Made by a program: the position numbers and the translations under genes. The notes beneath the pieces were generated by a model. The model saw nothing but the letters and a program-made list of their open reading frames with translations. It had not been told where the DNA came from and made no database searches. DNA of 33,783 nt, from contig CACYWH010000018.1 of the NCBI GenBank assembly GCA_902778125.1, positions 1-33,783 on the forward strand, written 5' to 3'. Below are positions 1 to 21,439 of the stretch, one piece after another; position 1 is the stretch's first letter, and each line of letters starts with the position of its first letter. Source of the DNA: an uncultured Erysipelotrichaceae bacterium (lineage in GTDB: Bacteria > Bacillota_I > Bacilli_A > RF39 > UBA660).

Positions 1-722
1 CCTGGATCCTCTGGCTGTGGAGTACTATCATTCCTTTTCCAATGACCATATAATGTTATATCTTTTGTAACAGTATATGTAGTATTTGTTATTTTCATAC
101 TTTTATCATAATATTGTTTTCCACCATCTTTTGTAGTATACCATCCTTGAAATGTACGATTAGTGCATTTAGGCTTTTCATTTGATTTTAATGTTGGTAA
201 TTTACTTCCCTCTTCTACCTCTTTTACTCCAGGCCCACCACTACCTCCAGCACTTGAAGTACAATTATTATTAAATGTTATTTTATATTTTTGTGATTCA
301 GCACTTGTATTTCCTGCTCCATATAGTGTTTCTAAGATTCCAGTTAATACTGTATCTAAATTTATATCAAATACTTCATTACCTACCTCTGTTGCTCCAT
401 TTGTTGTTCTTATTCTCACGGTAGCCTTAGGTGGTTCTTCATATATGTCATAGAAACTTAATTTATATGTTTTACTATTTACTACTGATTGTGAAAATCT
501 TCTTATAAACACTTCTACAAATTTTTCTTTTGACATTACTATTCTTCCAGTTGTTCTATATGTTCCATAATCAATCGCATCTAGCATTGATGATTCTAGT
601 ACTTCTCTTCCCAAATAAAAGTCTTCTTCTGTTGTTGTTGACATCCTTTGTACCATCATCATTATTATTATTATAGTTACCCCTAGTGCTAAAAGGAAGT
701 AAGCCCAATATGATTCCTTCAT
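1..722 (-). CDS. Partial short membrane-anchored protein with InlB-type repeat (cassette A, gene 3; 3' end off the window)
   Basis: The open frame starts with ATG at 722-720 and reaches the left edge with no stop, giving about 240 residues. Residues 7-25 form one hydrophobic helix just after MKES, so the protein is probably held in the membrane with most of it outside. Residues 1-138 are about 80% identical by eye to the product of 5169-5585. Unlike that copy, this one continues into a Gly/Ser-rich linker and a repeat (about residues 146-228) with the pattern FQGWYTTKDGG then TVTKDITLYGHW. That is the Listeria-Bacteroides/InlB B-repeat fold, common in surface proteins. A Pro-rich tail begins at the edge, so a sorting signal or more repeats could follow. 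The start lies 3 bases after the stop of the 1223-aa gene, and its ribosome site (AAGGCAGG) is inside that gene's last codons. The N-terminal helix could also be pseudopilin-like (TadE type), but I see no prepilin-peptidase site. Function unknown. Confidence 0.85.
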   Translation of the reverse strand, partial: MKESYWAYFLLALGVTIIIIMMMVQRMSTTTEEDFYLGREVLESSMLDAIDYGTYRTTGRIVMSKEKFVEVFIRRFSQSVVNSKTYKLSFYDIYEEPPKATVRIRTTNGATEVGNEVFDINLDTVLTGILETLYGAGNTSAESQKYKITFNNNCTSSAGGSGGPGVKEVEEGSKLPTLKSNEKPKCTNRTFQGWYTTKDGGKQYYDKSMKITNTTYTVTKDITLYGHWKRNDSTPQPEDP

Positions 723-725
723 TTG

Positions 726-3700
726 TTATGCACCTGCCTTATTTTCACTAAATTTAATACCTGTTCTAGTATATTTTGAAGTATTTAACTCTTTTAAGAA
801 TTTACTCTTACAGTTTTTAAACATTGGTAATTGATTAGTACCTTCTGTTACTTGTTCACAACTATATAAAGTCGCATCTTGATAGTCATAATTTGCATCT
901 GCATTATGCTTTCTTATTAATTCAGCACCAGAACTTGTAATTGTCACTTCAAATTCTAAATGTTTAGCTTCATTTGTAAATAATTCATCAGATGTTTTTT
1001 CTATTTCTTTAATAATTATACTAGCATTAGCAGTTGTCCAGTTTGTTCCAGTAGGACGTTCAGATGGGAATAAATCTCCTGGATCTACATTTCTGAATAT
1101 AGCTCCACTTTCTTCATTTGACTTACTAGTCCAACTTACATTACTTACATCAGGTATACCATTTTTAACTGGATTACTACTGTTATTCATACATTTGCTC
1201 AAATCAATTGAACCATCTTTAGCACGATAATCACAGTCGTATTTAACTGTAGTATTATAAACTTTATATGTACAAGAATAATTATATTTACTTCCGCTTG
1301 AAGATTTTATTCCATTAAAACTATATGAAATTTTTTTATCACCAGTAGATGTATCTAAACTAACTGGGTATGAATTGCTTGGAAGATCAATATAAGATGA
1401 GTCAGTCGCTGCACCAGAACTTACATTACCAGTAGATGCTTGAGTTTTAAATGCTTTCTTTTGATAATAATCACTTTCAGATACAACTATAAATGTTGCA
1501 TAATCATTAGTTGGAACTTTAGCACTCTTTCCATTTCTAGTTACTGTTGTAGTCTGACTTGTATTATATTTACCAGCATTTATCTCTACTGCCTCATTTT
1601 TCTTATATTCATAACATGCACCATGTACACCATTTTTACAATAATATGTTTTATTTTCATCAGTATTTTTCAATGATGTTGTTTTTCCAATTGATATATC
1701 ATCATTATATTCATCACTATATTTTATACTTGTTAATGTTGGACAATCGTTGCTGTTTTGACATAAAGCTAAACTCAATGCATAATCTTTAGACGCACCT
1801 TTTCCAGAAACTGCTTGTTTAATTCTATATTCACTTGGAATATCATTTTGATTATACATATTACAATTATATAATTCATATACCCAATTTTTCAATTCAG
1901 CTTCAGATGCACCTTTATCTACTTTTTGATTATAAATAGTTAACCAATTACTATATTTAATCTCTGAAGTACACTGACGCTTATTAAGTACTATAGCTGT
2001 TAATTTTGTATTATCATCTGTTAAAGTTTCTTTTATTATACCCTTATCTTTTAACGTTTGACCTAAATCATATCTAAATTGCATTCCAGCATATGTACCT
2101 GTTTTTCCAGGTAAATATATTTCAAGATCATCTTTACAATATATTTCACATACGTTAGCATTAGCAGAATATTTAGTTGTATATTTATATTCATTTTTCT
2201 TATATTCGTAACATGCATTCAATATACAGTTCATATTAGGACCTGATATTGAAGACTTAGTATACTCTGAACTATTACATGATGATTTTAAATCTTCTTT
2301 ATTAGATAAGTTAGTACATTTAACATTGTCATCACAAGGACATTGAATAGTTGTATATTGTTCTGTTGTTTCATCAACAGGTACTGTTTCTTTCTTTGTT
2401 TCTTCACATTTTTCTAAATTAAATGCAAACGTTGCCATAGTTTGATAATTATTTGGATTACTTTTCGCTCTATAGAATCGTACATACCCATTATTTCTTT
2501 GCCATTTTGCAATATAAACATCTATTCTCATTCCAAATGTACGCTGTGCGTTTGAAGCATATTCAACACAAGTTTTTTGTTGTATTTTGACTTGAACTTC
2601 ACATTTCATTTTACATCTATGTTTAGAACAAAAATCTCTGTCATGTGTAGTTTCATTTCCATTGGAAGCTTTAGTGTAATAATAACACTTTCCTTTTTCT
2701 AAAACATCCTTTGTAATTTCATCGCCTTTTCCAGTATCGTAATACTTAACTACTACATCGCATTTTCCATTCTTGTAATCGTCTTCAGTACAATCAACAA
2801 GAACTTGAGTAATACTCTCTGGTATATCTACAACTGTAATACCACTAGTATCAGAATATTGATAGAAATATGTGACGGGAACCTCTTTATCAAAAGATAC
2901 CCCATTTAGGAATTTACTAGGATCTTTAGATGCCTCATATGCATGTCTATATAATTCAACAGCCTGCTCAATTTTACAAGTATCACTAGCAGATGTACCA
3001 CATCCAATTACACTATTAGCATTATTACTATTAAGTCTCTTAGTCCATGTTCCCTTTTCTATAGCAGCTGCAGTTTTTTGATAATAATTTTCTTTAGCAA
3101 CCCATTCTACAGTATCAAACTCAGCACCAAAATTTTCTGCACTTCCAACTGCATATGCATCGAAGTTAGTATGATTAGATACCCACATTCTAAGTGCATA
3201 TGTTATAGAACCATAAGAATATTTTTTATTAGGTTCATATTTTTGAGTGGTACTATTGAATGTTACTGTTTGGAATAATATATCAGCAAGTCCACATCTC
3301 ATATCGTATCCACCATTTTTTCCATCTTTTCTATGTAATGAATCACTACAGTTAGATACATCAAATGTTGAATCTAATTTATATTCTGTACCTGTTCCTG
3401 GACTTTTGTTACCAGGTTGTAAACAATATGCAATATCTCCTGTTGAATCAGAAACTCCAGTGTCTATTTGATATTCAGCTGCTTGTACAGATTTTCTTCC
3501 AGATTCTTCTTTAGCATTAGCTTTTGCTTTCCAGCTTATTCTTTTATAACTCCATTTATAAAAAGTACACGTTTCATCAGGAGTATCATCTGGAAACCAG
3601 CATCCATTAGATAATTGCGTACAGATATTAACGCCCTCAAGGCTTTGTTCACATTTACCTTTATTTGAATACTGAATTTTACACATAGGTTTAGAATAGC

Positions 3701-4397
3701 AATTACTATTATTCGATTGCGTAGTACAATATTGAGTATTTGTGTCATCTGCATCACACTTTGAATTAGGGTGGCTTTTATCACAAGCAGGTGATGTATC
3801 ATCTGGAACATAGCATCCAGTTTTCTCATTCTTAGTGCACTTCTTTCCTGATGAAATTAAGCAACTACTCCTGCCAGAATACTTGCATTTCGGAGTAGTT
3901 GGTGTTGGATCATATGGAAGTGGAAACCTTGCTACTTTTAGTTTAGGATTAACAACAATATAAGGGGCAAGACTAACTTTATTAATCCAAGCTGATCCAC
4001 TTTCTGAAACTATTATAACAGCGCCCGCTTTACAAGACATCTTCTTCTCCTCAACAGTGCAAAGAGTACATGCGCTACTTCCTGAGCATTTATCTCTAGA
4101 TTGCCCAGCACAAGGATCTGTGCATGCTGGATCACTCTTTCGTTTTTCTTCACACAACTGTTTGGCGTCATCTAAACTTTTTAATGAATGACCATTAACT
4201 TCAGTTTCAGTTTTTTCACTGGGTATATATTTTGTTACCAACTCTCCAACGTCTTGTTTTTCACCTGTCCACTTTATGGTTACAATACCGTTACTATCAG
4301 ATGTACACGACGTTGTTGTCTTCGAATCTGCCGCATTTATATTTGAAATATTAATTATAAATAATAATCCAAATAATATAATTAATTTCTTTCTCAT
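726..4397 (-). CDS. Large secreted cysteine-rich surface protein, 1223 aa (cassette A, gene 2)
   Basis: I do not recognise the family. A signal peptide is clear (MRKK, hydrophobic core to about residue 20, likely cleavage after NINA). No C-terminal membrane segment or LPXTG-like signal is present; the protein ends NKAGA. It has many Cys residues, several in CxxC or C-x4-C spacing, which suggests extracellular disulfides. Residues about 170-280 form a Cys-dense segment with two related units (GCYVPDDT near 195, GCWFPDDT near 265). Residues 324-329 read YCLQPG, followed by CGLADILFQ (368-376) and SITYALRMW (397-405). This order resembles a thioester domain, but the expected Gln before the ALxxW part is Thr. 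It is a clear paralog of the 1180-aa protein at 5589-9131; shared blocks include ISGPNMNCILNAC, TYAGMQFRYDL and LPSNSYPVS. Its start overlaps the upstream gene's stop by 4 bases (ATGA). It is probably a secreted structural or adhesive subunit. Confidence 0.9.
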   Translation of the reverse strand: MRKKLIILFGLLFIINISNINAADSKTTTSCTSDSNGIVTIKWTGEKQDVGELVTKYIPSEKTETEVNGHSLKSLDDAKQLCEEKRKSDPACTDPCAGQSRDKCSGSSACTLCTVEEKKMSCKAGAVIIVSESGSAWINKVSLAPYIVVNPKLKVARFPLPYDPTPTTPKCKYSGRSSCLISSGKKCTKNEKTGCYVPDDTSPACDKSHPNSKCDADDTNTQYCTTQSNNSNCYSKPMCKIQYSNKGKCEQSLEGVNICTQLSNGCWFPDDTPDETCTFYKWSYKRISWKAKANAKEESGRKSVQAAEYQIDTGVSDSTGDIAYCLQPGNKSPGTGTEYKLDSTFDVSNCSDSLHRKDGKNGGYDMRCGLADILFQTVTFNSTTQKYEPNKKYSYGSITYALRMWVSNHTNFDAYAVGSAENFGAEFDTVEWVAKENYYQKTAAAIEKGTWTKRLNSNNANSVIGCGTSASDTCKIEQAVELYRHAYEASKDPSKFLNGVSFDKEVPVTYFYQYSDTSGITVVDIPESITQVLVDCTEDDYKNGKCDVVVKYYDTGKGDEITKDVLEKGKCYYYTKASNGNETTHDRDFCSKHRCKMKCEVQVKIQQKTCVEYASNAQRTFGMRIDVYIAKWQRNNGYVRFYRAKSNPNNYQTMATFAFNLEKCEETKKETVPVDETTEQYTTIQCPCDDNVKCTNLSNKEDLKSSCNSSEYTKSSISGPNMNCILNACYEYKKNEYKYTTKYSANANVCEIYCKDDLEIYLPGKTGTYAGMQFRYDLGQTLKDKGIIKETLTDDNTKLTAIVLNKRQCTSEIKYSNWLTIYNQKVDKGASEAELKNWVYELYNCNMYNQNDIPSEYRIKQAVSGKGASKDYALSLALCQNSNDCPTLTSIKYSDEYNDDISIGKTTSLKNTDENKTYYCKNGVHGACYEYKKNEAVEINAGKYNTSQTTTVTRNGKSAKVPTNDYATFIVVSESDYYQKKAFKTQASTGNVSSGAATDSSYIDLPSNSYPVSLDTSTGDKKISYSFNGIKSSSGSKYNYSCTYKVYNTTVKYDCDYRAKDGSIDLSKCMNNSSNPVKNGIPDVSNVSWTSKSNEESGAIFRNVDPGDLFPSERPTGTNWTTANASIIIKEIEKTSDELFTNEAKHLEFEVTITSSGAELIRKHNADANYDYQDATLYSCEQVTEGTNQLPMFKNCKSKFLKELNTSKYTRTGIKFSENKAGA

Positions 4398-5080
4398 TTC
4401 TCCTCTACTCCCCTTTTGTAACTTGATATTTTAATTCTATAATATATAGCAATAATCGCAAAAGGAATTATTACAAAATACCAATAAGATTTAATATATA
4501 GTAGGATTTTTTCAGAAATACTCATTTCTTCTTGAATAACTTTATTTTGCGCTTCTTCTAATTCTTCTTCACTCATGTTAGATATATCTGCATCAATTGC
4601 ACATATATCAGCATCTTTATGATTTTGACAAAATTCTGATGATGAATAGTTATTAAATCCATTTACTGTATGTCTAATTATTCTTAAAACATCATTTTTA
4701 CAAGTATCCTCCAAATTACTATATATAGCTATAGCATAATTTCTTGGCTCAAAATGAATATCTGATCCTACAACAACTGTTTCATATTTTTTACTATATT
4801 CTACTGGGTATTCCTCATCAGTATCAATATCATGAACCTCTAATTGAATACGATCATCGTAGGGTGTGAACGCTAATACATAAGTATATTCTTTTTCCCA
4901 CACTGAATCATATGTCTTGCCATCTGCGGTAGTCATTTTTATAGGTACATCACGATCTTCAATCATATGAACCTGAACTTCATTTGCCAAGTTAATTAAT
5001 TCTTGATTAGTACATACTGCTAAAGGATTAGTTATGAAAGCAAACATTAAAAAAAGTATAAAAAGTATTTTCTTATTCAT
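4394..5080 (-). CDS. Signal-peptide/TM partner protein, 228 aa (cassette A, gene 1)
   Basis: The family is not recognised. The protein starts with a signal peptide (MNKK, core to about residue 18). An extracellular domain of roughly 170 residues follows, then one C-terminal TM (about 198-215, SYWYFVIIPFAIIAIYY) and a short basic tail, giving a type I topology. The domain is predicted beta-rich and carries a paired Cys motif before the stalk (FC-x8-IC), then an acidic stretch (NMSEEELEEAQ). It is homologous to the 229-aa protein at 9128-9817 and more distantly to the 211-aa protein at 9907-10542. It is the first gene of cassette A, with its own promoter, and overlaps the large-protein gene by ATGA, so the two are probably made in a fixed ratio. 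Since the large partner has no anchor, this protein may hold or assemble it at the membrane. That role is inferred from context only. Confidence 0.88.
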   Translation of the reverse strand: MNKKILFILFLMFAFITNPLAVCTNQELINLANEVQVHMIEDRDVPIKMTTADGKTYDSVWEKEYTYVLAFTPYDDRIQLEVHDIDTDEEYPVEYSKKYETVVVGSDIHFEPRNYAIAIYSNLEDTCKNDVLRIIRHTVNGFNNYSSSEFCQNHKDADICAIDADISNMSEEELEEAQNKVIQEEMSISEKILLYIKSYWYFVIIPFAIIAIYYRIKISSYKRGVEEK

Positions 5081-5107
5081 ATAAGTTACACCTACTCTCT
5101 ATAATCA

Positions 5108-5116
5108 ATTATAACA
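5108..5116 (-). promoter_or_regulatory. Promoter (extended -10) of cassette A
   Basis: The minus strand reads TGTTATAAT, an extended -10 hexamer, with a poor -35. The predicted start of transcription is near 5101 and the first ATG is at 5080. The -10 is the left half of a palindrome, TATAATTGATTATA. The stretch from the -10 through the ribosome site (GAGAGTAGGTG) is nearly identical to that of cassette B at 9842-9850. Confidence 0.65.
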
Positions 5117-5141
5117 TATAATTTATTTTTGTACATAGAAA

Positions 5142-5170
5142 AAAGGTTTGAAAATAAATTTCAAACCTTT
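5142..5170 (-). terminator. Rho-independent terminator of cassette B
   Basis: A perfect 12-bp stem (AAAGGTTTGAAA at 5142-5153 with its complement at 5159-5170) has a 5-base loop and is followed on the minus strand by a T run. It overlaps the stop of the 138-aa gene and separates the two cassettes. Confidence 0.8.
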
Positions 5171-5585
5171 ATTTACTAACACCATATATCGTCTCTAAGA
5201 TTCCACTAGCAGTTGTGTCTAAGTTAACATCAAATGATTCGCTTCCTATTTCAGTAGTGCCGTTTGATGTTCTTATTCTTACTGTAGCTTTGGGTGGTTC
5301 TTCATATATGTCATAGAAACTTAATTCATATGTTTTATTATTAGTTACTGACTCTGCAAATCTTCTAATGAAAACTTCTACAAATTTTTGCTCAGACATC
5401 ACTATTTTTCCTGTTGTTCTATAAGTACCATAATCTACTGCATCAATCATAGATGCCTCTAGCACTTCCCTTCCTATATAGAAATCTTCCTCTGTAGTTG
5501 TTGTCATTCTTTGCACCATTAGCATTACTATTATTATAGTTACACCTAATGCCAATATGAAATATGCCCAATATGATTCTTTCAT
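5169..5585 (-). CDS. Short N-terminally membrane-anchored protein, 138 aa (cassette B, gene 3)
   Basis: The protein has one N-terminal hydrophobic helix (residues 7-25) after MKES, then a soluble extracellular part with a helical segment (REVLEASMIDAVDYG) and a beta-rich end (KATVRIRTSNG). It is about 80% identical by eye to the first 138 residues of the protein at 1-722, but it stops where that one goes on into an InlB-type repeat. The family is not recognised; TadE-like pseudopilins have a similar size and layout, but this is only an alternative. The ATG lies 3 bases after the stop of the 1180-aa gene, with its Shine-Dalgarno inside that gene's last codons, so translation is coupled. A strong terminator covers its stop codon. 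Confidence 0.85.
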   Translation of the reverse strand: MKESYWAYFILALGVTIIIVMLMVQRMTTTTEEDFYIGREVLEASMIDAVDYGTYRTTGKIVMSEQKFVEVFIRRFAESVTNNKTYELSFYDIYEEPPKATVRIRTSNGTTEIGSESFDVNLDTTASGILETIYGVSK

Positions 5586-5588
5586 TTG

Positions 5589-8500
5589 TTATGCACCTGC
5601 CTTATTTCCACTTACTTCTACACCAGCTCTATTGTAATCGCCTCTCTTTAATTCACTTAAGAATACGCTCTTACAATTTCTAAACTCAAACAATCCAGTT
5701 TCTTCATTTTTAATAATTTCACATTTTTCTAATGTTTGATTTAAATATCCGCCATTAGATGCTTCTTTATCGTTATATTCTTTTATTAGCTTGATTGCTG
5801 ATGGAGTTAATACATATCTATAATCTAGATATTTATCATTAGTAAATATATCTTTAGCACTACTTTCAATAGAATCTATAACACTCTTTCTACCTACCCA
5901 GTTTGTACCTGAATCTCTAGTAGATATATCATTATGAGTAACATCTGAATCAGGGAACAGATTATCAAGTTCTACATTTCTAAATACAAATCCATAACTC
6001 TTACTAGTACTTGTCTTCCAAGCAGAACATGATTCTTTTAATACAGGTATTCCATCATTCATTTCGAAACATGAATTCTTACAATTTGTTAAATCTATTG
6101 TTCCATTACTTGAATCATAATCACAATCATATAATACTGTTGTGTTATAAACATCATATACACAAGAATAATCATACTTAGTACTTCTCATACTTGGAAC
6201 TTTCTTAAATGTATAATTAATATTATAAGTTCCTGTAGGTGTATTAGTGCTTACTGGATATGAATTACTTGGTAGTTCTGCACTTCCGCGATCTTCAGTG
6301 CTACTCTCTTTAACTTTTCCAGTATAAACATCTGTCCTATATTTAGCATCTTGATAAAAATCACTTTCAGATAATATTTTAAATGTTGCATAATCATTTT
6401 GTGGTATTTGCATTGTTTTCGTACTACATGAACCATTAGTAGAACAATCTAGGTATTGAATAGTTTTTCTATTATTGCTTCCACTAATTTCAACTGCTTC
6501 ACCCTTTTTATATTCATAACACTTGTTACCAGCAGTATTCTTACAATAATATGTTCTATTTAAATTTGAATTAGCAACTAAACTAGAATTACTAGATATT
6601 TTAGCTGTTCCATATTCTGAATCATCATACTTAATTGATAATGTTGGACATTCATCATTATTTCCACACAATGCATTTCTAAGTGCATAGTCTTTAGATG
6701 TTCCTTGTCTAGGTACAACATTTGAATTATATGGATCAACTATTTCACTTGCTGTATATAAATTACAGTTTTGTAATTCATATAACCATTGTGATATTTC
6801 TTTTTTAGCAGCATTAATAGTGTTTTCATTTCCACTCTTAGCAGCTAATTCCAACATATCCTTCATTTTATTGTATTCTTCTTCCCAATAATCATATTTG
6901 ATTTCAGAAGAGCATTGACGTGTTACTTTAACTAAACTTGTTAATTTCTGACTATCTCCAACTAAAGTATTAGATAAAATTCCATGAGAATTTAACACAG
7001 ATGCTAAATCATATCTGAACTGCATTCCAGCATATGTACTAGTCTTGCCAGACATGTATAATTCAACATCATCTTTACAGAATAAATTACATACTTTATC
7101 ATTAACATTATATTTCCTATTATATTTGTATTGTTCTTGTTGAAGAGGTTGGCAAGCATTAAGAATACAGTTCATATTAGGTCCACTTATAGTTGATTTT
7201 GTATAATCTGAAGATGTATTACATGACTTCTGTAAATTTTCTTTTGTACTTAAATCATTACATCTAACTGTATCATTACAAGGACATACTATTTCAGTAG
7301 TATATTCAATTTCACCAGGAGTTGTAGTACTATTTTCAGTTTCACATTTTTCTAAATTATAAGCAAATGATATCATTTTTTGATATTTACTTGGCTGAGT
7401 AGCATGAGTGTAAAATCTTACCCATCCATTATTTCTTTGCCATTTTTTAATATTTACTTTAATTATAAATTCTTGCTTATTTCCAGGTATTTTCCATTCT
7501 TCACATAATTTTTGAGTAGTAGTTACAATTTTACAATTACGTTTATCACAATAACTGCCTCTACCACCACCAGGTAATATAACTTTATCAGTTACATCAA
7601 CTAATTTACCTGTATTAGGATCTCTTACATAATATTTAACTTCAACATCACATGTACCATTTATTATATCTTCCTCAGTACATTCTTGTATAACATCGCC
7701 TATTTTTTCAGGAAGTTGAACATCAGTTTCTCCCATATAAGTACTTGTTTGTGTATATTTAACAACAGGTACTTCTTTTTCGAATGTTGCACCACCCAAG
7801 AATGTATCTTTAGTAGCACTTTCTGTGTGATGGAAAAGTTCAATTGCTTGATCTATTACACAATTACCATGAGTTTCATCTTTTCCGCAATATAATAAGT
7901 TTCTGTTATTAGTCATATTTGCTTTATAACTAGTATCATATGTTTTTCCATTTGCTATAGCTTTAGCTGTATATTCATAGAAGTTTTCTTTAGGAATCCA
8001 GTCAAGAATAGATTCAGAACTAGATCCATCCATCTTTAAACTATATTGATTTTTACCATATTGTGCCATCCATAATCTAAGAGCAAGAGTAATTGCTTCA
8101 TTGCTATATTTGCCATTTGATTTATACCAATTGGCTGTAGCAGTTATTTCTTCTCCATCAACTGTAATAGTATAAGGTGCTGAATCTTCAGAAGGCTCAA
8201 CTGTTTGGAATAATATATCAGCAAGTCCACATTGTACTAAATTTTCACCTTTATTATTTTTAAATTGGTTAGCACATACAGATACATCAAAATTAGTATC
8301 TAATACATAATCAAGTCCACTAGCTCCAGGTCCACTAGCTCCGGGTTGTAAACAATATACTGGATCATGTGAATATTCATCTGCAGTTACTTCAACTTCA
8401 TAACTATATGCATACACCTCTTGAGGTGTTAATACACAGTCTTCAGATGCTCTAGTTGCTTTAGTTTTAGGCATAATTGCCTCATATGTACAATCTTCTT

Positions 8501-9131
8501 CAGCAGCACTTCCGCCACCACCGCCTATACTAGAGCCATCAATATCTATTGCTTGTAAAAGTTTATTTTTAACTTCAAAACTATTAATTTCTGACAATAA
8601 ATTTATCATTGCCGTCATTGGAAATTCTACAATTCCAGGTCTAGTAATACTTGGAGTACCTGGCTTATCTGGCTTACCTGGTTTAACAATTGGAGGTAAA
8701 TTAGGTTTGGTAGTACTTTCAGCTGGCTTACAATTCTTCTTAACTATACATTGAGGTTTCGTACAGTGAGAACCACTACACTTGAATTTAGGGTCATCAG
8801 AATTACAACATGAAGGTGCATGCCAAGCATCTATCTCAGGTTGATTTTTACATAACTCTTCGGCTTCTTCTTGGGTATTTGCTGTGCCTAAAGAAATATT
8901 TTCAGTTTCATAATTATATTTATAAACACAAGTATAAACTACACCAGCTTGTTTTCTTTCTTCATTCCACTTTACTTTAATAGTACCATTTTTATCATTT
9001 ACACATTTAATATCTGTCTTACCATCAACAGTAGTTGTAGTTGTTGTAGATGTGTCAGCTGCTTTTATAGATAAAGGCATAAGCAAGCATAAGAATAATG
9101 CTACTAATATTTTACTATGTTTGTTTCTCAT
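5589..9131 (-). CDS. Large secreted cysteine-rich surface protein, 1180 aa (cassette B, gene 2)
   Basis: This is a paralog of the 1223-aa protein of cassette A with the same plan. A signal peptide (core to about residue 22, likely cleavage after IKA) leads to a Cys-rich N-terminal part. The YCLQPG motif is at 259-264, then CGLADILFQ (301-309) and ITLALRLW (347-354), followed by about 800 residues of conserved Cys-rich sequence ending NKAGA. There is no C-terminal anchor. Where cassette A has a Cys-dense segment, this copy has a Pro/Lys-rich linker (KPGKPDKPGTP near 150) and a Gly run (about 203-207), so that region looks exchangeable. The YCLQPG and ALxLW order recalls thioester adhesin domains, with Thr where Gln is expected. 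The gene overlaps the upstream 229-aa gene by ATGA. It probably forms a secreted structure or adhesin with its two cassette partners; function unproven. Confidence 0.9.
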   Translation of the reverse strand: MRNKHSKILVALFLCLLMPLSIKAADTSTTTTTTVDGKTDIKCVNDKNGTIKVKWNEERKQAGVVYTCVYKYNYETENISLGTANTQEEAEELCKNQPEIDAWHAPSCCNSDDPKFKCSGSHCTKPQCIVKKNCKPAESTTKPNLPPIVKPGKPDKPGTPSITRPGIVEFPMTAMINLLSEINSFEVKNKLLQAIDIDGSSIGGGGGSAAEEDCTYEAIMPKTKATRASEDCVLTPQEVYAYSYEVEVTADEYSHDPVYCLQPGASGPGASGLDYVLDTNFDVSVCANQFKNNKGENLVQCGLADILFQTVEPSEDSAPYTITVDGEEITATANWYKSNGKYSNEAITLALRLWMAQYGKNQYSLKMDGSSSESILDWIPKENFYEYTAKAIANGKTYDTSYKANMTNNRNLLYCGKDETHGNCVIDQAIELFHHTESATKDTFLGGATFEKEVPVVKYTQTSTYMGETDVQLPEKIGDVIQECTEEDIINGTCDVEVKYYVRDPNTGKLVDVTDKVILPGGGRGSYCDKRNCKIVTTTQKLCEEWKIPGNKQEFIIKVNIKKWQRNNGWVRFYTHATQPSKYQKMISFAYNLEKCETENSTTTPGEIEYTTEIVCPCNDTVRCNDLSTKENLQKSCNTSSDYTKSTISGPNMNCILNACQPLQQEQYKYNRKYNVNDKVCNLFCKDDVELYMSGKTSTYAGMQFRYDLASVLNSHGILSNTLVGDSQKLTSLVKVTRQCSSEIKYDYWEEEYNKMKDMLELAAKSGNENTINAAKKEISQWLYELQNCNLYTASEIVDPYNSNVVPRQGTSKDYALRNALCGNNDECPTLSIKYDDSEYGTAKISSNSSLVANSNLNRTYYCKNTAGNKCYEYKKGEAVEISGSNNRKTIQYLDCSTNGSCSTKTMQIPQNDYATFKILSESDFYQDAKYRTDVYTGKVKESSTEDRGSAELPSNSYPVSTNTPTGTYNINYTFKKVPSMRSTKYDYSCVYDVYNTTVLYDCDYDSSNGTIDLTNCKNSCFEMNDGIPVLKESCSAWKTSTSKSYGFVFRNVELDNLFPDSDVTHNDISTRDSGTNWVGRKSVIDSIESSAKDIFTNDKYLDYRYVLTPSAIKLIKEYNDKEASNGGYLNQTLEKCEIIKNEETGLFEFRNCKSVFLSELKRGDYNRAGVEVSGNKAGA

Positions 9132-9817
9132 TGCTTTCTCACCTTCTCTTTATATTTAAATATCTTTAATCCATATATAGCAGATACAACTAATATTGGA
9201 ATTATTACAAAATACCAATACTTTCCAATATAATAGAATATTTTTTGGAAAGTACTCATATTTTCAATCTTTTTTCTTTCTTCTGTTTCTTCTACTACTT
9301 TTTGGAAATCTTTTTGAGTCATTTTAGAAGTATCATATGCTATTGAACATATATCTTCATCAGGATTCTCATCACAATAAGAATACATACTATATTCATT
9401 AAATGCAGGAACAGTATATTTTAAACTACTAATCAACTCATTAGGACATGCTGAGCTCTCAGAACCATAAACACTTATAGTATATGTTTTTGGTTGATAA
9501 TGAATAATTGATCCATATTCAAATGCATCATAATATTCACTTTTTTCAGCATAATTGGTTGTATTAGAAATTGAATCCTTAACAGTTATTCTTAATTTTT
9601 CTGAATAAGGATACGTATAAATTAAATATGCATATCTTTGCTCCCTTACATATTTTGTACCATCAGTACTTGTCATTTCATGATCACTATCTGGAGCATA
9701 ACCAACTCTAAGTTGACTTACAAGATCTTTTATTTCTTGATCAGTACATGCCGCATTAACATTCATTGAAAAAACAAATACTAATAATACAATTAATAAT
9801 ATTTTTATTTTTTTCAC
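9128..9817 (-). CDS. Signal-peptide/TM partner protein, 229 aa (cassette B, gene 1)
   Basis: This homolog of the 228-aa protein of cassette A has a signal peptide ending near VNA (residues 1-22), an extracellular domain with the paired Cys motif YC-x8-IC, an acidic/charged stalk, one C-terminal TM (about 199-216, KYWYFVIIPILVVSAIYG) and a basic tail. The start is GTG at 9817, chosen because AGGTGG lies at a good distance upstream and the signal peptide begins there (MKKIKILL). It is the first gene of cassette B, behind its own promoter, and overlaps the large-protein gene by 4 bases. The family is not recognised. A membrane anchor or assembly role for the 1180-aa partner is inferred from the fixed gene order in both cassettes. 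Confidence 0.87.
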   Translation of the reverse strand: MKKIKILLIVLLVFVFSMNVNAACTDQEIKDLVSQLRVGYAPDSDHEMTSTDGTKYVREQRYAYLIYTYPYSEKLRITVKDSISNTTNYAEKSEYYDAFEYGSIIHYQPKTYTISVYGSESSACPNELISSLKYTVPAFNEYSMYSYCDENPDEDICSIAYDTSKMTQKDFQKVVEETEERKKIENMSTFQKIFYYIGKYWYFVIIPILVVSAIYGLKIFKYKEKVRKQ

Positions 9818-9841
9818 TTTTCCACCTACTCTCTATAATTG

Positions 9842-9850
9842 ATTATAGCA
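9842..9850 (-). promoter_or_regulatory. Promoter (extended -10) of cassette B
   Basis: The minus strand reads TGCTATAAT. The following sequence forms the palindrome TATAATCAATTATA and continues into the same GAGAGTAGGTG leader as cassette A. The predicted transcription start is near 9835, 17 bases before the GTG start. Confidence 0.65.
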
Positions 9851-9873
9851 CATCTATTTTTATTTGCATAGAA

Positions 9874-9906
9874 AAAGATTTGAAAAAAATTTTTTTTCAA
9901 ACCTTT
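9874..9906 (-). terminator. Terminator of the sortase operon
   Basis: A 13-bp A/T-rich stem (9874-9886 with 9894-9906, one G-U pair) is followed by a T run on the minus strand. It sits directly after the 211-aa gene and before the cassette B promoter. Confidence 0.75.
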
Positions 9907-10542
9907 TTAAATACCATGTTGTATTTTACTAAATTTTGATCTAAATATTGCTGCTGTTATAAGTGAAACAACTAACACCAATATTATTGGAATTCCCCAA
10001 GTATCAGTAAATGATTTTAAGCTATCTAATATTGTTTCTTCTTCGCCTTCAGGCTTTTTCTCTTCAGATGAAGATAATGTTTTATTATAATTATCTATCA
10101 TAGACTTACGTAATCCAACAGTTGGTTCATATGATAAGTATGTATCTGTACAAATACTCAATTTGTTTACGTAACTAGCACATTCTGCTGAATCACGTAA
10201 TGTATTATAATATCCAAGCGTAATATTAATAGTTCTAAGTAAAGGAGTGCAATTATCTAATGCAGAATTAACAAGTATAACTGCATACTCTCCTTGTTTA
10301 ATTCCACTTATTGTAACTTCGTTTTGACTGTTTGGACTATAGATATCATTATTGTAAGTTAAATACATTCCATTATATACGTTATAAAAAACTATGGTAT
10401 ATGTCATTGTATCTTTATAAAAAGCTCCATCATAAGTTATGTTACTTGCAAGTTTATTTTGATCATTCCATTTACTAATATCACAATCAGCATAAATAGC
10501 AAAAGGTATCATTAATAATAAAATAAATAATATTTTTTTCAT
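9907..10542 (-). CDS. Signal-peptide/TM protein coupled to sortase, 211 aa
   Basis: A signal peptide (MKKILFILLLMIPFAIYA) is followed by a mostly beta-rich extracellular domain, a charged stalk (SSSEEKKPEGEEE near 157-169) and one C-terminal TM (about 181-200, WGIPIILVLVVSLITAAIF) with a short basic tail. The layout and the two spaced Cys near the stalk make it a distant relative of the 228- and 229-aa cassette proteins. It has no Cys-rich partner of its own; it is coupled instead to the sortase gene by a 4-base ATGA overlap with a strong ribosome site (AAAGGAGG). It may be a sortase partner or a generic form of the cassette anchor. The family is not recognised. Confidence 0.85.
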   Translation of the reverse strand: MKKILFILLLMIPFAIYADCDISKWNDQNKLASNITYDGAFYKDTMTYTIVFYNVYNGMYLTYNNDIYSPNSQNEVTISGIKQGEYAVILVNSALDNCTPLLRTINITLGYYNTLRDSAECASYVNKLSICTDTYLSYEPTVGLRKSMIDNYNKTLSSSEEKKPEGEEETILDSLKSFTDTWGIPIILVLVVSLITAAIFRSKFSKIQHGI

Positions 10543-12164
10543 TCTTCCTCCTTTAACATAACTGCATGAATAACTAACCTTCTATTTCCACTACCAGCAC
10601 AAGTAGATAAAGTTAATATTTTATCACCATAAGTAATTTTATCATCAGTATCAAAATTACTTCTATCTCTTATTAACTTAATAAAATCATTAAATTCTTT
10701 TTCATCATCAAAATTAGTTATTAAATAATCTGTTGTATAGTCTACTTTATATCCAGCAAATATTTTAAATTTATATGATTCTTTTTCAGTATCATAACTA
10801 AATATCATATTCTCACTATTTTTTCTCCACTTAGAATTTAATATATTTTTAAGAGAACCAAACATAATTCCGTTTCCACTTGAATAATGTCCATATATTA
10901 TTGTATTATCATCCCATGACTTTGAATTATTTCTATAATCCATAAATATCCATCCAACACTCTTACTCTTTTTAAAGTAATCATGTTTTAAATAATATAC
11001 ATTATCGTCATGTTGAACAACTGGATACTTTACTTCAGTATTATTTATAGTTAAATATCCAACAGTTTCATTATTTATTTTCTTTAAATTAGAAAATGCT
11101 TTTTCAAATGTATATTTTTGAATCATTTGTTCACGTTCAGAAAGAGTAATTTCTTCTTCCTCATCTTCTTCATCAGGATTTTGATTAACTTCAACTGGTT
11201 CATTATTTATATTATTTGCAATTGAACTACTAATTATATCAGTATTTAATTTATCAACACTAAGTTTATCAATATAATCATATGATTTGATTATTATTAG
11301 TGAAACAAAACTAACATATATGCATAATGAAGCAATCAATTTTAAATTATTAAATGTTAATTGTTTAAATAAATTATTACTTAAGAATGAATTTGAATAT
11401 ACAATTCTAAATTCACACATATATTCTTTTTTACATTTTTTATTTAATTCTTTTAACCATGAAAAATTACTTGTTATAAAGTTTCCTTTATCGTAACCTT
11501 GGTGTAAAAAAACTATAATATTTCTTGATTCATCATCTTTTACAAGATCAATAACATTTTCAATTATTTCTTTTGAAAAAACATAAATATTTATTGTTTT
11601 TAAATTATAATTTATTCTTAAAAATTCTTTTATATCATCTATGATTCCAGGATAAACTTCTTTTATATCCAATGCTTTTCTATAATATAAAGTTTCATAA
11701 TCAAATGAATCTTGTTGAAGCATAAATCTATCTGAAACTTTATTTTCATTTTTCATATTTATATGAACACCATTATCTTCAAACTTACTCAACATAAATT
11801 TAGGCATATAATAACAATCTATTAGTTTTAAAGATTTTACATTTAAGAACATTTCATAATCTTCAAGTGCTAATGTAGATGGCATATCTAATTTTAAATA
11901 ACTAATTTCAAAAAAATCCATTAATAAAATTACATATTTAAATGTTACTAATTTCTTAATACATAAACTTTCTATACTAAGTGATTGATTTTTTATTAAA
12001 TAGCATATTTTATCAATATGTTTTTTAAAGTATTCTAATGTATAAAAAAGAGAATTGTTATTAGCAATATTTTTATTTACATATTTTTTTTCATCATTAT
12101 TTATCTCTCTAAAATCATAAATAATAGATGAATCAACAATAGTTATTACAATATGTTTTTTCAT
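10539..12164 (-). CDS. srtB: Class B sortase with ~270-aa cytoplasmic N-terminal domain
   Basis: Sortases are membrane transpeptidases that cut a sorting signal and attach the protein to the cell wall or to a pilin. The sortase domain occupies about residues 345-541. His426 is in NTIIYGHYSSGNG, Cys522 in TLSTCAGSG and the catalytic Arg529 in RRLVIHA; the TLSTC spacing and the region before His fit class B. A single TM (273-293) and an acidic linker (about 330-340) precede it. Residues 1-270 are an unrecognised, predicted cytoplasmic alpha/beta domain. Class B sortases usually have about 220-260 residues, so this extension roughly doubles the protein. The gene heads an operon with the 211-aa protein and lies next to the two surface cassettes, which makes their products its probable substrates or partners. 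No clear sorting motif is visible in the complete cassette proteins; one could lie beyond the left edge. Confidence 0.93.
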   Translation of the reverse strand: MKKHIVITIVDSSIIYDFREINNDEKKYVNKNIANNNSLFYTLEYFKKHIDKICYLIKNQSLSIESLCIKKLVTFKYVILLMDFFEISYLKLDMPSTLALEDYEMFLNVKSLKLIDCYYMPKFMLSKFEDNGVHINMKNENKVSDRFMLQQDSFDYETLYYRKALDIKEVYPGIIDDIKEFLRINYNLKTINIYVFSKEIIENVIDLVKDDESRNIIVFLHQGYDKGNFITSNFSWLKELNKKCKKEYMCEFRIVYSNSFLSNNLFKQLTFNNLKLIASLCIYVSFVSLIIIKSYDYIDKLSVDKLNTDIISSSIANNINNEPVEVNQNPDEEDEEEEITLSEREQMIQKYTFEKAFSNLKKINNETVGYLTINNTEVKYPVVQHDDNVYYLKHDYFKKSKSVGWIFMDYRNNSKSWDDNTIIYGHYSSGNGIMFGSLKNILNSKWRKNSENMIFSYDTEKESYKFKIFAGYKVDYTTDYLITNFDDEKEFNDFIKLIRDRSNFDTDDKITYGDKILTLSTCAGSGNRRLVIHAVMLKEEE

Positions 12165-12193
12165 AACCTATTCTCCTATAATACTATTTATAT

Positions 12194-12221
12194 ATTATCA
12201 CAAATCAAAATAAAAACTCAA
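12194..12221 (-). promoter_or_regulatory. Promoter of the sortase operon
   Basis: The minus strand shows a -35 TTGAGT (12221-12216), a 16-base spacer and a -10 GATAAT (12199-12194) preceded by TGT. The predicted transcription start is near 12187. A ribosome site (AGGAG) precedes the ATG at 12164. Confidence 0.55.
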
Positions 12222-12250
12222 TATTAATAATAAATTAACTGTAAAATAAA

Positions 12251-12274
12251 AAATGAAATTATTCTATTTCATTT
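12251..12274 (-). terminator. Terminator after the 173-aa membrane protein gene
   Basis: A 9-bp stem (AAATGAAAT at 12251-12259 with 12266-12274) has a 6-base loop and is followed by a T-rich run on the minus strand. It overlaps the stop codon of the gene. Confidence 0.7.
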
Positions 12275-12780
12275 TTTCTAATAACTTTTCTAAGTTCCTT
12301 ATAATCTATTTTTTCAAGTTCACTATTAATCACTTCAATTGCTTTTCCATCTTTAATGATAATTATTAATGGTGGATTAGTTATATCTTTTGATATTTCA
12401 GGAAATCTTTTATTTAATATTTTTAGATATTCATTATTTTCCATTAAATCAGTTACATTAAAATAAACTACTATATCTAATAAATTGTTTTTTTCCAATT
12501 CTTTATAGATTTTTTTATCAGTATCATATACAGGCTTTGAACCGGTATAACTTACATATAATACTGCATCCCTATATTCGGATAAACTAAATTCTATATC
12601 ATCTTTTTTAATTTCACTTATTTTTTTACTAGAAAAGTAACTAACATCAAGCTTAGTTGCCTGATAACTTAAATAAAATGATCTTAAATATAATGTTAAT
12701 ATTATTACTAATATAGACGCCACTAAAACTATTATATAGTTTTTAGTAGGTATTTGTTTTTCTTCAATCTTCTTAGTCAT
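12259..12780 (-). CDS. Membrane-anchored thioredoxin-like protein without CxxC, 173 aa
   Basis: The start at 12780 is chosen over an in-frame ATG at 12813, because GGAGG lies 6 bases upstream of 12780 and the protein then begins MTKKIEEKQ. One TM near the N-terminus (about 16-35) is followed by an extracytoplasmic domain. Its alpha/beta pattern is compatible with a thioredoxin fold: AVLYVSYTGSKPVYD where the redox motif would be, a long helix, DIVVYFNVTD, then NPPLIIIIKDGKAIEV. The CxxC is absent, so a redox role is unlikely. It follows queG by 41 bases and probably shares its transcript, ending at the terminator at 12251-12274. The thioredoxin-like assignment rests on pattern only. Confidence 0.75.
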   Translation of the reverse strand: MTKKIEEKQIPTKNYIIVLVASILVIILTLYLRSFYLSYQATKLDVSYFSSKKISEIKKDDIEFSLSEYRDAVLYVSYTGSKPVYDTDKKIYKELEKNNLLDIVVYFNVTDLMENNEYLKILNKRFPEISKDITNPPLIIIIKDGKAIEVINSELEKIDYKELRKVIRKNEIE

Positions 12781-12821
12781 AAGACCTCCATATTTACAAA
12801 TATATTTTAACATATAAATAT

Positions 12822-18673: not shown

Positions 18674-18695
18674 AACAATGAAATTTTTCATTGTT
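18674..18695 (-). terminator. Terminator of the BspA-like gene
   Basis: A 9-bp stem (AACAATGAA with its complement) and a 4-base loop are followed by TTTTTTT on the minus strand. It overlaps the end of the BspA-like gene. Confidence 0.75.
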
Positions 18696-20152
18696 TAATT
18701 AGTTTTTCTAGTTAAATAGCCAGGTGCACTACTTGTATCAATACGAGCATACTCTACATTTGTTTTACTACTGTTATATGTAGTACCATTACCACCAACT
18801 ATACTTACTGTAGATGCAAACATATCGGTACTATTAGTAATGCCATCCATTTTCCATAAATCAGAAACATATATTGTTTTAAGTCTATGATTATTGCTAA
18901 ACATAAATGCAGTATTTGTAGCATTAGCAGTATTGAATTTACTTAAATCCAAATCTTTTAATTCATAGCAATTATAAAACATTATTGATAAATCAGATGC
19001 ATTTTTAAATGTTGCATTACCAAAATTAATATGTTCAACGGCATTGCAATTTTTAAACATACCAGCGGCAGTAGTAACTTTATCAGTATTAAAATTACTT
19101 ATATCTATTTCTGGCAATTTACGGCATTCATCAAAAACACCTATCATATTAGTTACATTACTAGTATCTAACATACTAACATCTAAATTTTCCAAACTAC
19201 TACAATTGTAAAACATTCCTTGCATAGTAATTGCTTTAGATGTATCTAGTGTACTTAAATTTAACGTTTTCAATGATGAGCATCCAGAAAACATATCATA
19301 GAATACTGTAACATGACTAGAATCTATCCATCTAGTATTTAAACTTTCTATTGAAGATAAATTATAGAACATTCTAAACATATTTCTTGTATTAGAAGTG
19401 TCTAATCCAGACATATCTAACTCCTTCAAATTTGTATAATTTGCAAAAATATAACTACAATCTTCTGGAGCTATTACTCTTCCAGTTGATGCGATAGAAA
19501 GTTCATATAAATTATTATTATTTATATCTGTTATCCATGCCATTACTCCTTCATTATGTTCCTTTGAAGCATCCCAAACTGCTATAGCATTTTCTGGTAT
19601 GTCTATTCTATTTAAAACTTTAATACTTTCTACTTTAGATTTTTCTAAGGTATATCCAAATATATTATTAGTATTCCATGTTGATTCTACAAGTGTAGAT
19701 GACATTTCATAAAATTCCCAAGGATTTGAATAAGATCCATCTCCTCTAACTCCAGTATTTCGTTTTACAAATTCAGTTATTCTAGAACCATAACTATCTG
19801 TTTTGGGTTTTAATTCACCATTAAAAGAAGTTATAGCATTAACATTATTACCCTCTTCAGTCATTGTCCAATACTTTAAACCGTTAAATAAATATGTAGT
19901 TCCATTTATTTTTGAAATATTATATTCATCTAAATTAATATATCCACCTTTTGAAAAATCTTCATTAACACTTAAAATACCATTCTCATAACTATATTTA
20001 GCATCATCAAACAAAAGATAAGTTGTGTATTTATCAAATCTCTCTATATAATTTTCAATTCCATATTTAGATGTTTCATAATCATTTAACATTGCTGCTT
20101 TAACATTTATGAATATCATTGATGTAATTAATATAATAATAATTTTTTTCAT
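18695..20152 (-). CDS. Secreted BspA-like protein with DUF285 repeats, 485 aa
   Basis: A signal peptide (MKKIIIILITSMIFINVKA) leads to an unassigned N-terminal region of about 210 residues, containing GVRGDGSYSNPWEF, a pattern seen in Firmicute surface proteins. From about 230 to 450 are tandem units of roughly 23-25 residues with the signature LDxSxLDTSNxTNMxxMFxxCSSL. This is the DUF285/BspA-like leucine-rich repeat found in adhesins and secreted proteins of gut bacteria. The protein ends APGYLTRKTN with no sorting motif or TM, so how it stays on the surface, if it does, is unclear. It follows the YgjV-type gene by 7 bases in one operon, with AAAGTAGG as a weak ribosome site. Confidence 0.9.
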   Translation of the reverse strand: MKKIIIILITSMIFINVKAAMLNDYETSKYGIENYIERFDKYTTYLLFDDAKYSYENGILSVNEDFSKGGYINLDEYNISKINGTTYLFNGLKYWTMTEEGNNVNAITSFNGELKPKTDSYGSRITEFVKRNTGVRGDGSYSNPWEFYEMSSTLVESTWNTNNIFGYTLEKSKVESIKVLNRIDIPENAIAVWDASKEHNEGVMAWITDINNNNLYELSIASTGRVIAPEDCSYIFANYTNLKELDMSGLDTSNTRNMFRMFYNLSSIESLNTRWIDSSHVTVFYDMFSGCSSLKTLNLSTLDTSKAITMQGMFYNCSSLENLDVSMLDTSNVTNMIGVFDECRKLPEIDISNFNTDKVTTAAGMFKNCNAVEHINFGNATFKNASDLSIMFYNCYELKDLDLSKFNTANATNTAFMFSNNHRLKTIYVSDLWKMDGITNSTDMFASTVSIVGGNGTTYNSSKTNVEYARIDTSSAPGYLTRKTN

Positions 20153-21149: not shown

Positions 21150-21439
21150 TCATAAACTGTCATTTTTGAAAAAAGAGCAAAATTTTGAAAAACGGTGTTT
21201 ACTTCCCTTTTAGTTGCATCCAAATATGTAACATCCTTATTATCAATAAATACTTTTCCACTTGTAACTTCTTCAAGTCCAGAAATAATTCTTAAAACTG
21301 TAGTTTTTCCACATCCAGATGATCCAAGTAAAGTTATAAATTCCCCTTCATATATATCTAAAGAAAAGTCTTTAATAACACTTACATCATCAAATTTTTT
21401 ATTAACATCTAATAGTTTTACAATAACATTTTTTTCCAT
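21068..21439 (-). pseudogene. potA: Truncated spermidine/putrescine importer ATPase (potA')
   Basis: PotA drives polyamine uptake with PotBCD. The 123-aa frame contains the PotA N-terminus: Walker A GSSGCGKTT near residue 36 and the Q-loop region [30 protein letters not shown], the PotA-type form. After about residue 105 (near 21125) the match ends, and the last ~18 residues are read from aguA sequence in a different frame until a TAA at 21068. The signature, Walker B and H-loop, about 240 residues in all, are gone, so the product cannot hydrolyse ATP. The promoter and ribosome site (AGAGGT) are still intact. The original order was probably potA, more pot genes, then aguA, an operon for polyamine/agmatine use. 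Confidence 0.87.

What the first reader, a model, noticed from the sequence alone, without database searches (positions are those of the whole stretch)
1..12164. Tandem duplicated three-gene surface cassette with its own sortase
The sequence shows two copies of the same gene order: signal-peptide/TM protein (228/229 aa), secreted Cys-rich protein (1223/1180 aa) and short N-anchored protein. Each copy has a promoter, with a terminator between them, directly downstream of a class B sortase operon. The two gene junctions are the same in each copy (a 4-base ATGA overlap, then a TAACAAATG spacing). I know no described pilus or adhesin system of this make-up. I infer a secreted multi-subunit surface structure in which the TM proteins anchor or assemble the large subunit.
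Basis: partly seen in the sequence, partly recalled or inferred. Interest (0 to 1): 0.82.

Follow-up and report, generated by a model that had tools for sequence, protein, structure and literature searches.

The report
Adhesin cassettes of a pilus-secretion machine
The duplicated three-gene cassette is the outer, adhesin-carrying end of a chromosomal pilus- or secretion-type machine that one family of small-genome bacteria (probably uncultured gut Bacilli) carries almost without exception; in most of their genera it is joined to a DNA/protein-injection (type IV secretion) apparatus that the window's genus seems to have lost.

Summary
Two divergent tandem copies of A (4-Cys ectodomain plus C-terminal TM), B (1180/1223-aa Cys-rich secreted protein) and C (Pfam DUF5411) lie downstream of a class B sortase gene and a third A-family gene. 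The interpretation stops too early. Contig C37 of the same genome overlaps the window's left edge by exactly 99 bases and continues the locus: CpaB-like x2, CpaF/VirB11 ATPase, two GspF-like membrane proteins, two small pilin-like proteins, TadZ-like and VirB2-like proteins. The same order recurs in nearly every genome checked of the window's family. In 13 of 15 other-genus loci followed further it runs on into TrbL/VirB6 and VirB4, mostly with VirD4: a Tad/T4SS hybrid at a conserved chromosomal site. The four same-genus loci followed lack that half. DUF5411 proteins of relatives end in exchangeable modules (dockerin, VanY-type M15 peptidase, C39 peptidase, repeats), which fits a displayed pilin-like subunit. 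The sortase is at the locus throughout the genus but absent from it in most other genera, and no sorting signal was found. A DUF5411-CpaF-GspF operon was predicted computationally in 2022 (PMC9523054); the adhesin partners, T4SS continuation, modules and sortase variants appear undescribed.

The parts
10539..12164 (-). SrtB: class B sortase (541 aa) with ~270-aa cytoplasmic N-terminal region, one TM (~274) and extracellular sortase domain; His (GHY, 425-427), Cys (TLSTC, 518-522) and Arg (RRLV, 528-531) motifs present
   Evidence: TIGR03064 1.2e-46, above cutoff; PF04203 1e-13; catalytic motifs
9907..10542 (-). A3: third A-family protein (211 aa), signal peptide, 4 Cys, C-terminal TM; overlaps SrtB by 4 bases
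   Evidence: same cluster as A1/A2 through relatives; alignment A5 with 4 invariant Cys; direct BLAST to A1/A2 is weak
9128..9817 (-). A2: signal peptide, 4-Cys ectodomain, C-terminal TM (229 aa)
   Evidence: no Pfam family
5589..9131 (-). B2: large secreted Cys-rich protein (1180 aa, 46 Cys), no C-terminal TM; degenerate thioester-domain-like motif VYCLQPG
   Evidence: no Pfam/PDB match
5169..5585 (-). C2: DUF5411, leaderless N-terminal TM protein (138 aa), pilin-like by architecture
   Evidence: PF17424 4.5e-48; N-terminus MKESYWAY shared in style with the two pilin-like families
5142..5170 (-). hairpin + T-run between copies (terminator-like)
   Evidence: a related hairpin precedes A2
5092..5103 (-). 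shared 5' element TATAGAGAGTAG upstream of A1
9826..9837 (-). shared 5' element TATAGAGAGTAG upstream of A2 (also, in a near-identical form, before CpaB, L079:302-315)
4394..5080 (-). A1 (228 aa), second copy of A
   Evidence: 35% to A2
726..4397 (-). B1 (1223 aa, 53 Cys), second copy of B
   Evidence: 41% to B2 over 1006 aa
3..722 (-). C1: DUF5411 plus C-terminal Listeria-Bacteroides repeat; 270 aa when completed from C37
   Evidence: PF17424 2.5e-47, PF09479 5.5e-9; completion
1..99 (-). 99-base exact overlap with the start of contig C37 (L079), which continues the locus: CpaB-like L079:316-1164 and 1164-1934, CpaF 1974-3128, GspF-like 3145-4044 and 4044-4841, pilin-like 4931-5194 and 5270-5737, TadZ-like 5744-6751, VirB2-like 6795-7178

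Best explanation
The cassette is the extracellular end of an envelope-spanning type IV filament / type IV secretion-type machine fixed in the chromosome of the window's bacterial family. SHOWN: gene content and order, family-wide conservation, linkage to a CpaF/VirB11 ATPase, CpaB-like and pilin-like proteins, continuation into a T4SS (VirB6, VirB4, hydrolase, VirD4) in most other genera, and absence of that half at the locus in the four other species of the window's genus that were followed. INFERRED: CpaF with the two GspF-like proteins works leaderless pilin-like subunits (DUF5411 and the two small proteins) into a short or long filament guided by CpaB; DUF5411 is the displayed subunit near the tip, carrying exchangeable C-terminal modules and, non-covalently or by disulfide exchange, the large Cys-rich protein B, which acts as adhesin; A, made by coupled translation just before B, holds B at the membrane until handover; the second cassette supplies an alternative adhesin/pilin pair; SrtB-A3 fixes some component to the wall in this genus.
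For: C37 joins the window by a 99-base exact overlap and carries CpaB-like (TIGR03177 5e-8), CpaF (PF00437 6.6e-29; TadA model 9e-30; hhalign to TadA 99.7%) and VirB2-like genes. DUF5411 occurs in 36 of 37 searched genomes of the family and a divergent T2SSE ATPase is near it in most. A-LARGE-DUF5411-CpaB-CpaF-GspF-GspF-pilins-TadZ-VirB2-like order in the locus table; CpaF followed by both GspF-like genes in 38 of 39, CpaB within 3 genes of DUF5411 in 37 of 40. The second GspF-like family reaches a protein (1.5e-12) whose plasmid homologs are annotated T2SSF beside CpaF/VirB11, VirD4 and VirB4. VirB4 in 13 of 15 followed loci of other genera, 12 of them also with VirD4; VirB4 matches a solved VirB4 at 9e-54, VirD4 matches TrwB at 2e-5; TrbL_4 best 3.3e-10, T4SS_pilin in 11 of 19. 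DUF5411 C-terminal modules: dockerin, M15, SH3, C39. A DUF5411 homolog in another family also precedes CpaB-CpaF-GspF-GspF. Shared 5' element before both cassettes and CpaB.
Against: No filament, interaction or secretion has been observed. The pilin-like proteins lack a class III signal peptide and the locus has no prepilin peptidase. Pfam does not recognise either GspF-like protein directly. AlphaFold models were poor (B2 pLDDT 61.6, C2 50.9) with no significant fold match, so adhesin and pilin folds are untested. B's role as adhesin rests on size, secretion, Cys content and a degenerate thioester-domain-like motif (hhalign 55% over 20 columns). The join to C37 is by assembly overlap plus synteny, not by a long read.
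Confidence: 0.66

Rival explanations
1. Conjugation-derived mating machine: the locus is a T4SS with a mating-pair adhesin (B), as in pLS20-type plasmids, and in the window's genus it is a decaying remnant.
For: VirB4, VirD4, TrbL, VirB2-like and hydrolase-like genes adjoin in most other genera; a conjugative-looking locus of another family has a large protein with thioester-domain likeness directly before pilins-CpaF-GspF-TrbL-PrgI-VirB4; Bacillus plasmids share CpaF-GspF-VirD4-VirB4; a TED adhesin is required for efficient pLS20 conjugation (PMC8092201).
Against: Near-universal, single chromosomal site with housekeeping-like neighbours (rhodanese-, RmuC- and RNase R-like genes, my reading) rather than patchy mobile distribution; no relaxase recognised nearby by eye (not searched); genes on C37 are intact and highly conserved (first GspF-like family 73% mean column identity), unlike a remnant.
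Confidence: 0.17
2. Type II-like secretion: the pilin-like proteins form a short pseudopilus that extrudes B (and other Sec-exported proteins) through the thick wall; A is its chaperone.
For: B has a Sec signal peptide and no wall anchor; CpaF/GspF/pseudopilin set; the published prediction labels the DUF5411 operon 'secretion-related' (PMC9523054).
Against: DUF5411 modules such as dockerin and wall-active peptidases on the subunit itself suggest display rather than a piston; one B per DUF5411 gene suggests stoichiometric partnership.
Confidence: 0.12
3. One reading: a sortase-assembled or sortase-anchored multi-subunit structure in which the TM proteins are the anchors.
For: Catalytically complete SrtB at the locus in the genus, embedded in two arrangements; a second sortase family sits immediately before B, in place of A, in five loci.
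Against: No LPxTG/NPxTN-type sorting signal in A, B or C; the same machine lacks a locus sortase in most other genera; C37 shows an ATP-driven pilus motor.
Confidence: 0.05

Closest known systems
DUF5411-CpaF-PilC/GspF 'secretion-related' operon predicted by gene-embedding NLP (PMC9523054)
   Same: CpaF ATPase, GspF-type membrane protein, DUF5411 protein, and a protein with a domain remotely like internalin B, in one 8-9 gene operon
   Different: Reported for Roseburia, Ruminococcus and Eubacterium records; the main text does not mention the A-LARGE partners, tandem cassettes, sortase, TrbL/VirB4/VirD4 continuation, or exchangeable DUF5411 modules. I could not test its taxonomy.
Tad / Flp (type IVc) pilus
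   Same: CpaB-like, CpaF, two GspF-like proteins, small TM pilin-like proteins, weak TadZ likeness
   Different: No Flp class III signal peptide, no TadV in the locus, GspF-like proteins too divergent for Pfam, extra A-LARGE-DUF5411 front end and VirB2-like protein; a canonical Tad locus exists separately in some genera of the family
pLS20-type conjugation system of Bacillus plasmids
   Same: CpaF/VirB11 next to GspF-like proteins, TrbL-like protein (c14 profile hits a pLS20_p028-family protein at 1.1e-7), VirB4, VirD4; TED adhesin used in mating (PMC8092201)
   Different: Chromosomal and family-wide here; no relaxase identified; T4SS half missing at the locus in the window's genus; no DUF5411 or A match found in the plasmid stretches read (DUF5411 only 0.0099)
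Sortase-dependent (class C) pili
   Same: a sortase beside large surface proteins
   Different: class B sortase, no sorting signals, ATPase-driven motor genes instead

Membership tests
Tad (type IVc) pilus | TadA/CpaF ATPase | tested here: met
   PF00437 6.6e-29; TIGR03819 9.4e-30 below curated cutoff; hhalign TadA 99.7%
Tad (type IVc) pilus | TadB and TadC (GspF-family) platform proteins | tested here: inconclusive
   No direct Pfam match; profile of the second reaches L145 and L198 proteins (1.5e-12, 1.1e-7), the latter annotated T2SSF; of the first 6e-6 and 2e-4
Tad (type IVc) pilus | CpaB/RcpC SAF-domain protein | tested here: inconclusive
   TIGR03177 5e-8 but under its curated cutoff; PF08666 SAF 8.8e-4, just under cutoff; position and architecture agree
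Tad (type IVc) pilus | Flp pilin with class III signal peptide (G|xxxxEY) | tested here: not met
   pilin-like families start M[KR]E[AS].G with no such site; canonical loci of relatives do have KGQALVEY
Tad (type IVc) pilus | dedicated prepilin peptidase TadV in the locus | tested here: not met
   one A24 peptidase per family genome searched, at the separate type IVa pilus locus
Tad (type IVc) pilus | TadZ/CpaE | tested here: inconclusive
   hhalign 71% over 80 columns; no PDB match
Type IV secretion system | VirB4 and VirD4 ATPases at the locus | tested here: inconclusive
   VirB4 in 13 and both in 12 of 15 followed loci of other genera; absent from the locus in the four same-genus species followed; for the window's own genome the contig ends before this point and the rest was not searched
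Type IV secretion system | VirB2-like pilin and VirB6/TrbL | tested here: inconclusive
   the window's genome has a VirB2-like gene (T4SS_pilin 6.9e-5, sub-cutoff; 11 of 19 relatives match); TrbL seen only in other genera
Conjugative element | relaxase / oriT | not tested
   no family search left; none recognised by eye in the genes listed
Sortase-dependent pilus | LPxTG-type sorting signals on subunits | tested here: not met
   motif and C-terminal TM scan
Sortase-dependent pilus | pilin-type class C sortase | tested here: not met
   class B model TIGR03064 1.2e-46
Thioester-domain adhesin (TED) | Cys-Gln thioester motifs and TED profile match | tested here: not met
   B1/B2 have no Pfam TED match; Cys motif present, thioester Gln position replaced; hhalign 55% over 20 columns only; the positional analogue in L145 gives TED_2 9.5e-4, under cutoff

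The most novel reading that the evidence does not exclude
A family-wide hybrid of Tad motor and T4SS channel, chromosomally fixed in small-genome, probably gut bacteria, whose leaderless pilin-like subunit DUF5411 is a plug-in display unit (dockerin, wall peptidases, repeats) paired with a fast-evolving giant adhesin. It serves cell-to-cell or host contact and delivery rather than DNA transfer, and the window's genus has reduced it to an adhesive filament with duplicated tips and a sortase.
Probability: 0.33. Interest if true: 0.8.

Novelty: new variant of a known kind. Interest (0 to 1): 0.66.

Why it matters
The bacteria involved, probably the uncultured order RF39, have genomes of about 0.8-1.7 Mb, and I found almost nothing in the held papers on their surface biology. 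A locus kept in nearly every species must matter to how they live. The find links an orphan Pfam family (DUF5411) to a defined machine, gives an intermediate between Tad pili and Gram-positive conjugation systems, and shows what looks like loss of the secretion half within one genus. The questions of how contact machines lose injection function, and whether leaderless pilins assemble, become testable by comparing sister genera.

Tried and rejected
Structure prediction of B2 and DUF5411: low confidence, Foldseek vs PDB found nothing significant. PDB sequence searches with the B, GspF-like, TadZ-like and TrbL-like alignments: nothing meaningful. B as true thioester-domain adhesin: not supported. 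Sorting signals: none; pilin-like family 2 has an I-P-I-[ST]-G stretch near its C-terminus in the genus, but with no hydrophobic tail; the matching stretch in another genus's copies (VPVYTRT, QVAGQTK) looks like an ordinary strand, so rejected. GspF-like families vs canonical TadB/TadC by hhalign: no match. Cohesin partners for the dockerin modules: mostly weak cohesin hits, in genomes with and without dockerin on DUF5411, so no pairing claimed. Recent duplication: rejected, since B1 and B2 each group with a different copy in a sister species (quick tree). The tree of A was not finished. Second GspF-like protein against plasmids directly: no match.
Full report
WHAT WAS CHECKED. The window is the whole of contig C18 (33,783 bases) of a 1.27 Mb, 50-contig genome. 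The two cassettes are real: A2-B2-C2 and A1-B1-C1, all on the minus strand, with identities of 35% (A), 41% (B) and 80% (C) between copies. Both A/B joins are ATGA overlaps, and both B/C joins read GGCAGGTGCATAACAAATG. The spacers before A1 and A2 are alignable, with a hairpin and a TATAAT...TATAGAGAGTAG element. This 12-mer occurs only at those two places in the window (0.02 expected) and in a near-identical form before the next operon on C37. General promoter and terminator scans were not above chance. The pattern was picked after inspection, so its statistic is descriptive.

WHAT THE GENES ARE. C is Pfam DUF5411. B and A match no family. A has four invariant cysteines, a signal peptide and a C-terminal TM. 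B is secreted, with 46-53 cysteines and no C-terminal anchor. The gene after the sortase is a third A-family member. SrtB is class B (TIGR03064 1.2e-46), with catalytic His, Cys and Arg motifs and a long cytoplasmic N-terminal part.

PAST THE LEFT EDGE. Contig C37 (locus L079) begins with the last 99 bases of the reverse-complemented window, a typical assembly overlap, and synteny in the relatives agrees with the join. C1 ends after 30 more residues (270 aa), followed by a T-rich hairpin. Then come two CpaB-like genes, a CpaF ATPase, two multi-TM proteins, two small single-TM proteins, a TadZ-like protein and a two-TM protein. The ATPase is T2SSE at 6.6e-29, VirB11 model 1.3e-33 and TadA model 9.4e-30, and hhalign to TadA of relatives gives 99.7%. 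The CpaB likeness is 5e-8. The two multi-TM proteins have no direct Pfam match. Their profiles reach homologs in other families (6.5e-19 and 3.8e-36 in L144; 6e-6 and 1.5e-12 in L145), and relatives of L145's second one on Bacillus plasmids are annotated 'type II secretion system F family' in one record and lie beside CpaF/VirB11. I therefore call them GspF-like. The two-TM protein is VirB2-like: T4SS_pilin in 11 of 19 members, best 4.8e-7.

DISTRIBUTION. DUF5411 was found in 36 of 37 genomes of the window's family, and outside the family only faintly in two samples of relatives and phylum. The first GspF-like family was found in 18 of 19 sampled family genomes plus one outlier. The order A-LARGE-DUF5411-CpaB-CpaF-GspF-GspF-pilins-TadZ-VirB2-like recurs throughout. 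In an outlier of another family, a DUF5411 homolog (1e-13) again precedes CpaB-CpaF-GspF-GspF-pilin. The organism names of hits (uncultured Bacilli, Tenericutes or Clostridia MAGs) suggest order RF39; that is my inference. RF39 is predicted to keep peptidoglycan and sortases (PMC10868615).

THE T4SS HALF. I followed the locus further in 15 genomes of other genera. Thirteen continue with TrbL/VirB6, usually a PrgI-like two-TM protein, a ~185-aa protein and VirB4 (591-596 aa). Twelve of these then show a 600-1150-aa single-TM protein and VirD4; in the thirteenth (G391) the stretch ended after the single-TM protein and one more gene. G032 shows VirD4 but no VirB4 in the stretch, and G398 shows neither. 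In the two loci read in full, the long single-TM protein ends in what looks like a wall-hydrolase domain (by eye). VirB4 matches the solved VirB4 4ag5 at 9e-54, VirD4 matches TrwB at 2e-5, and TrbL_4 is matched up to 3.3e-10. Beyond VirD4 the same rhodanese-like and RmuC-like genes recur (read from sequence), which argues for a fixed chromosomal site. In the four species of the window's genus that were followed, the VirB2-like gene is followed by a 615-687-aa membrane protein (Sulfatase/LtaS-like in L072) and no T4SS genes. Because C37 ends just after the VirB2-like gene, this is inferred, not seen, for the window's own genome, which may encode VirB4 elsewhere.

SORTASE. In the window's genus SrtB-A3 lies at the locus in every locus that extends far enough, either before the cassettes or between A-LARGE and DUF5411. 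A different sortase, with the T[CL]xTC-type motif, sits immediately before the large protein, in place of A, in five loci (L074, L085, L086, L087, L157). Most other genera have neither at the locus. No subunit has a recognisable sorting signal. The sortase is best read as an accessory that some lineages use for anchoring.

DISPLAY MODULES. DUF5411 proteins vary at the C-terminus: dockerin repeats (up to 8.5e-24), M15 D-Ala-D-Ala peptidase (4.8e-11) with SH3, a C39-like peptidase (3.4e-5) and Listeria-Bacteroides repeats. The N-terminal ~133 residues stay constant. The three pilin-like families mostly share the start M[KR]E[AS], but no classical cleavage site, and the only prepilin peptidase of each family genome lies at a separate type IVa pilus locus. 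A leaderless pilin-like display subunit is the economical reading, but the model of DUF5411 is too poor to test the fold.

DUPLICATION. In a quick tree, B1 groups with the first and B2 with the second large protein of a sister species, so the two cassettes predate the split of these species and are maintained as distinct variants. Several congeners also have two large proteins. One (G002) has two DUF5411 genes with the same frameshift near an A-run.

MECHANISM AND RIVALS. See Best explanation. The locus identity is strong (I would put ~0.9 on 'part of a CpaF/GspF pilus-secretion locus'). The roles of A, B and SrtB, and whether the product is a filament, are inferences. The main rival is a conjugation system or its descendant; a TED adhesin is needed for efficient pLS20 mating and is not coupled to the wall by a sortase (PMC8092201), which is a striking parallel to B.

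NOVELTY. The CpaF-GspF-DUF5411 association was predicted in PMC9523054. No other held paper names DUF5411. New here, as far as the held literature shows: the A-LARGE partners, the T4SS continuation and its absence in one genus, the module swaps, the sortase variants and the tandem cassettes.

Noticed in passing
L145 (G041:C17:1-16000): Conjugative-looking locus in another family: 1224-aa protein with ChW and sub-cutoff TED_2/TED matches, two pilin-like proteins (one DUF4320-like), CpaF, two GspF-like, TrbL, PrgI-like, VirB4; a possible mobile cousin of the window's machine.
   Followed up: partly
L090 (G002) 7425-7853 and 12076-12504: Both tandem DUF5411 genes carry the same frameshift near an A-run; could be phase variation, gene conversion of a defect, or an assembly effect.
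   Followed up: partly
L078:1274-2365 (G014): A classical N-methylation-motif pilin with DUF6273 inserted in the locus between the DUF6568 gene and SrtB.
   Followed up: partly
L085, L087, L157 (c27 genes): ~600-aa single-TM proteins with a pilin-like N-terminal helix preceding the alternative sortase and the large protein; relatives also lie next to VirD4 in some genera.
   Followed up: no
G005:C3:90889, G008:C4:9980, G014:C19:94642 and others: A ~500-aa protein with a weak cohesin match lies several kb beyond the locus in many congeners, on the opposite strand, with or without dockerin on DUF5411.
   Followed up: partly
window 12259-12813: DUF6568 protein beside SrtB; in about half of the congeners it moves with SrtB-A3 into the middle of the locus.
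   Followed up: partly
window 21068-21439: 123-aa N-terminal fragment of an ABC ATPase (4.9e-21) beside an NMT1-type ABC transporter operon; looks truncated.
   Followed up: no
window 18695-20152: DUF285 (Mycoplasma-type surface repeat) protein, 485 aa, 5.4e-38.
   Followed up: no
L099-L103, L111, L112: Some genera of the family also carry a separate canonical Tad locus with ordinary Flp-type pilins.
   Followed up: partly
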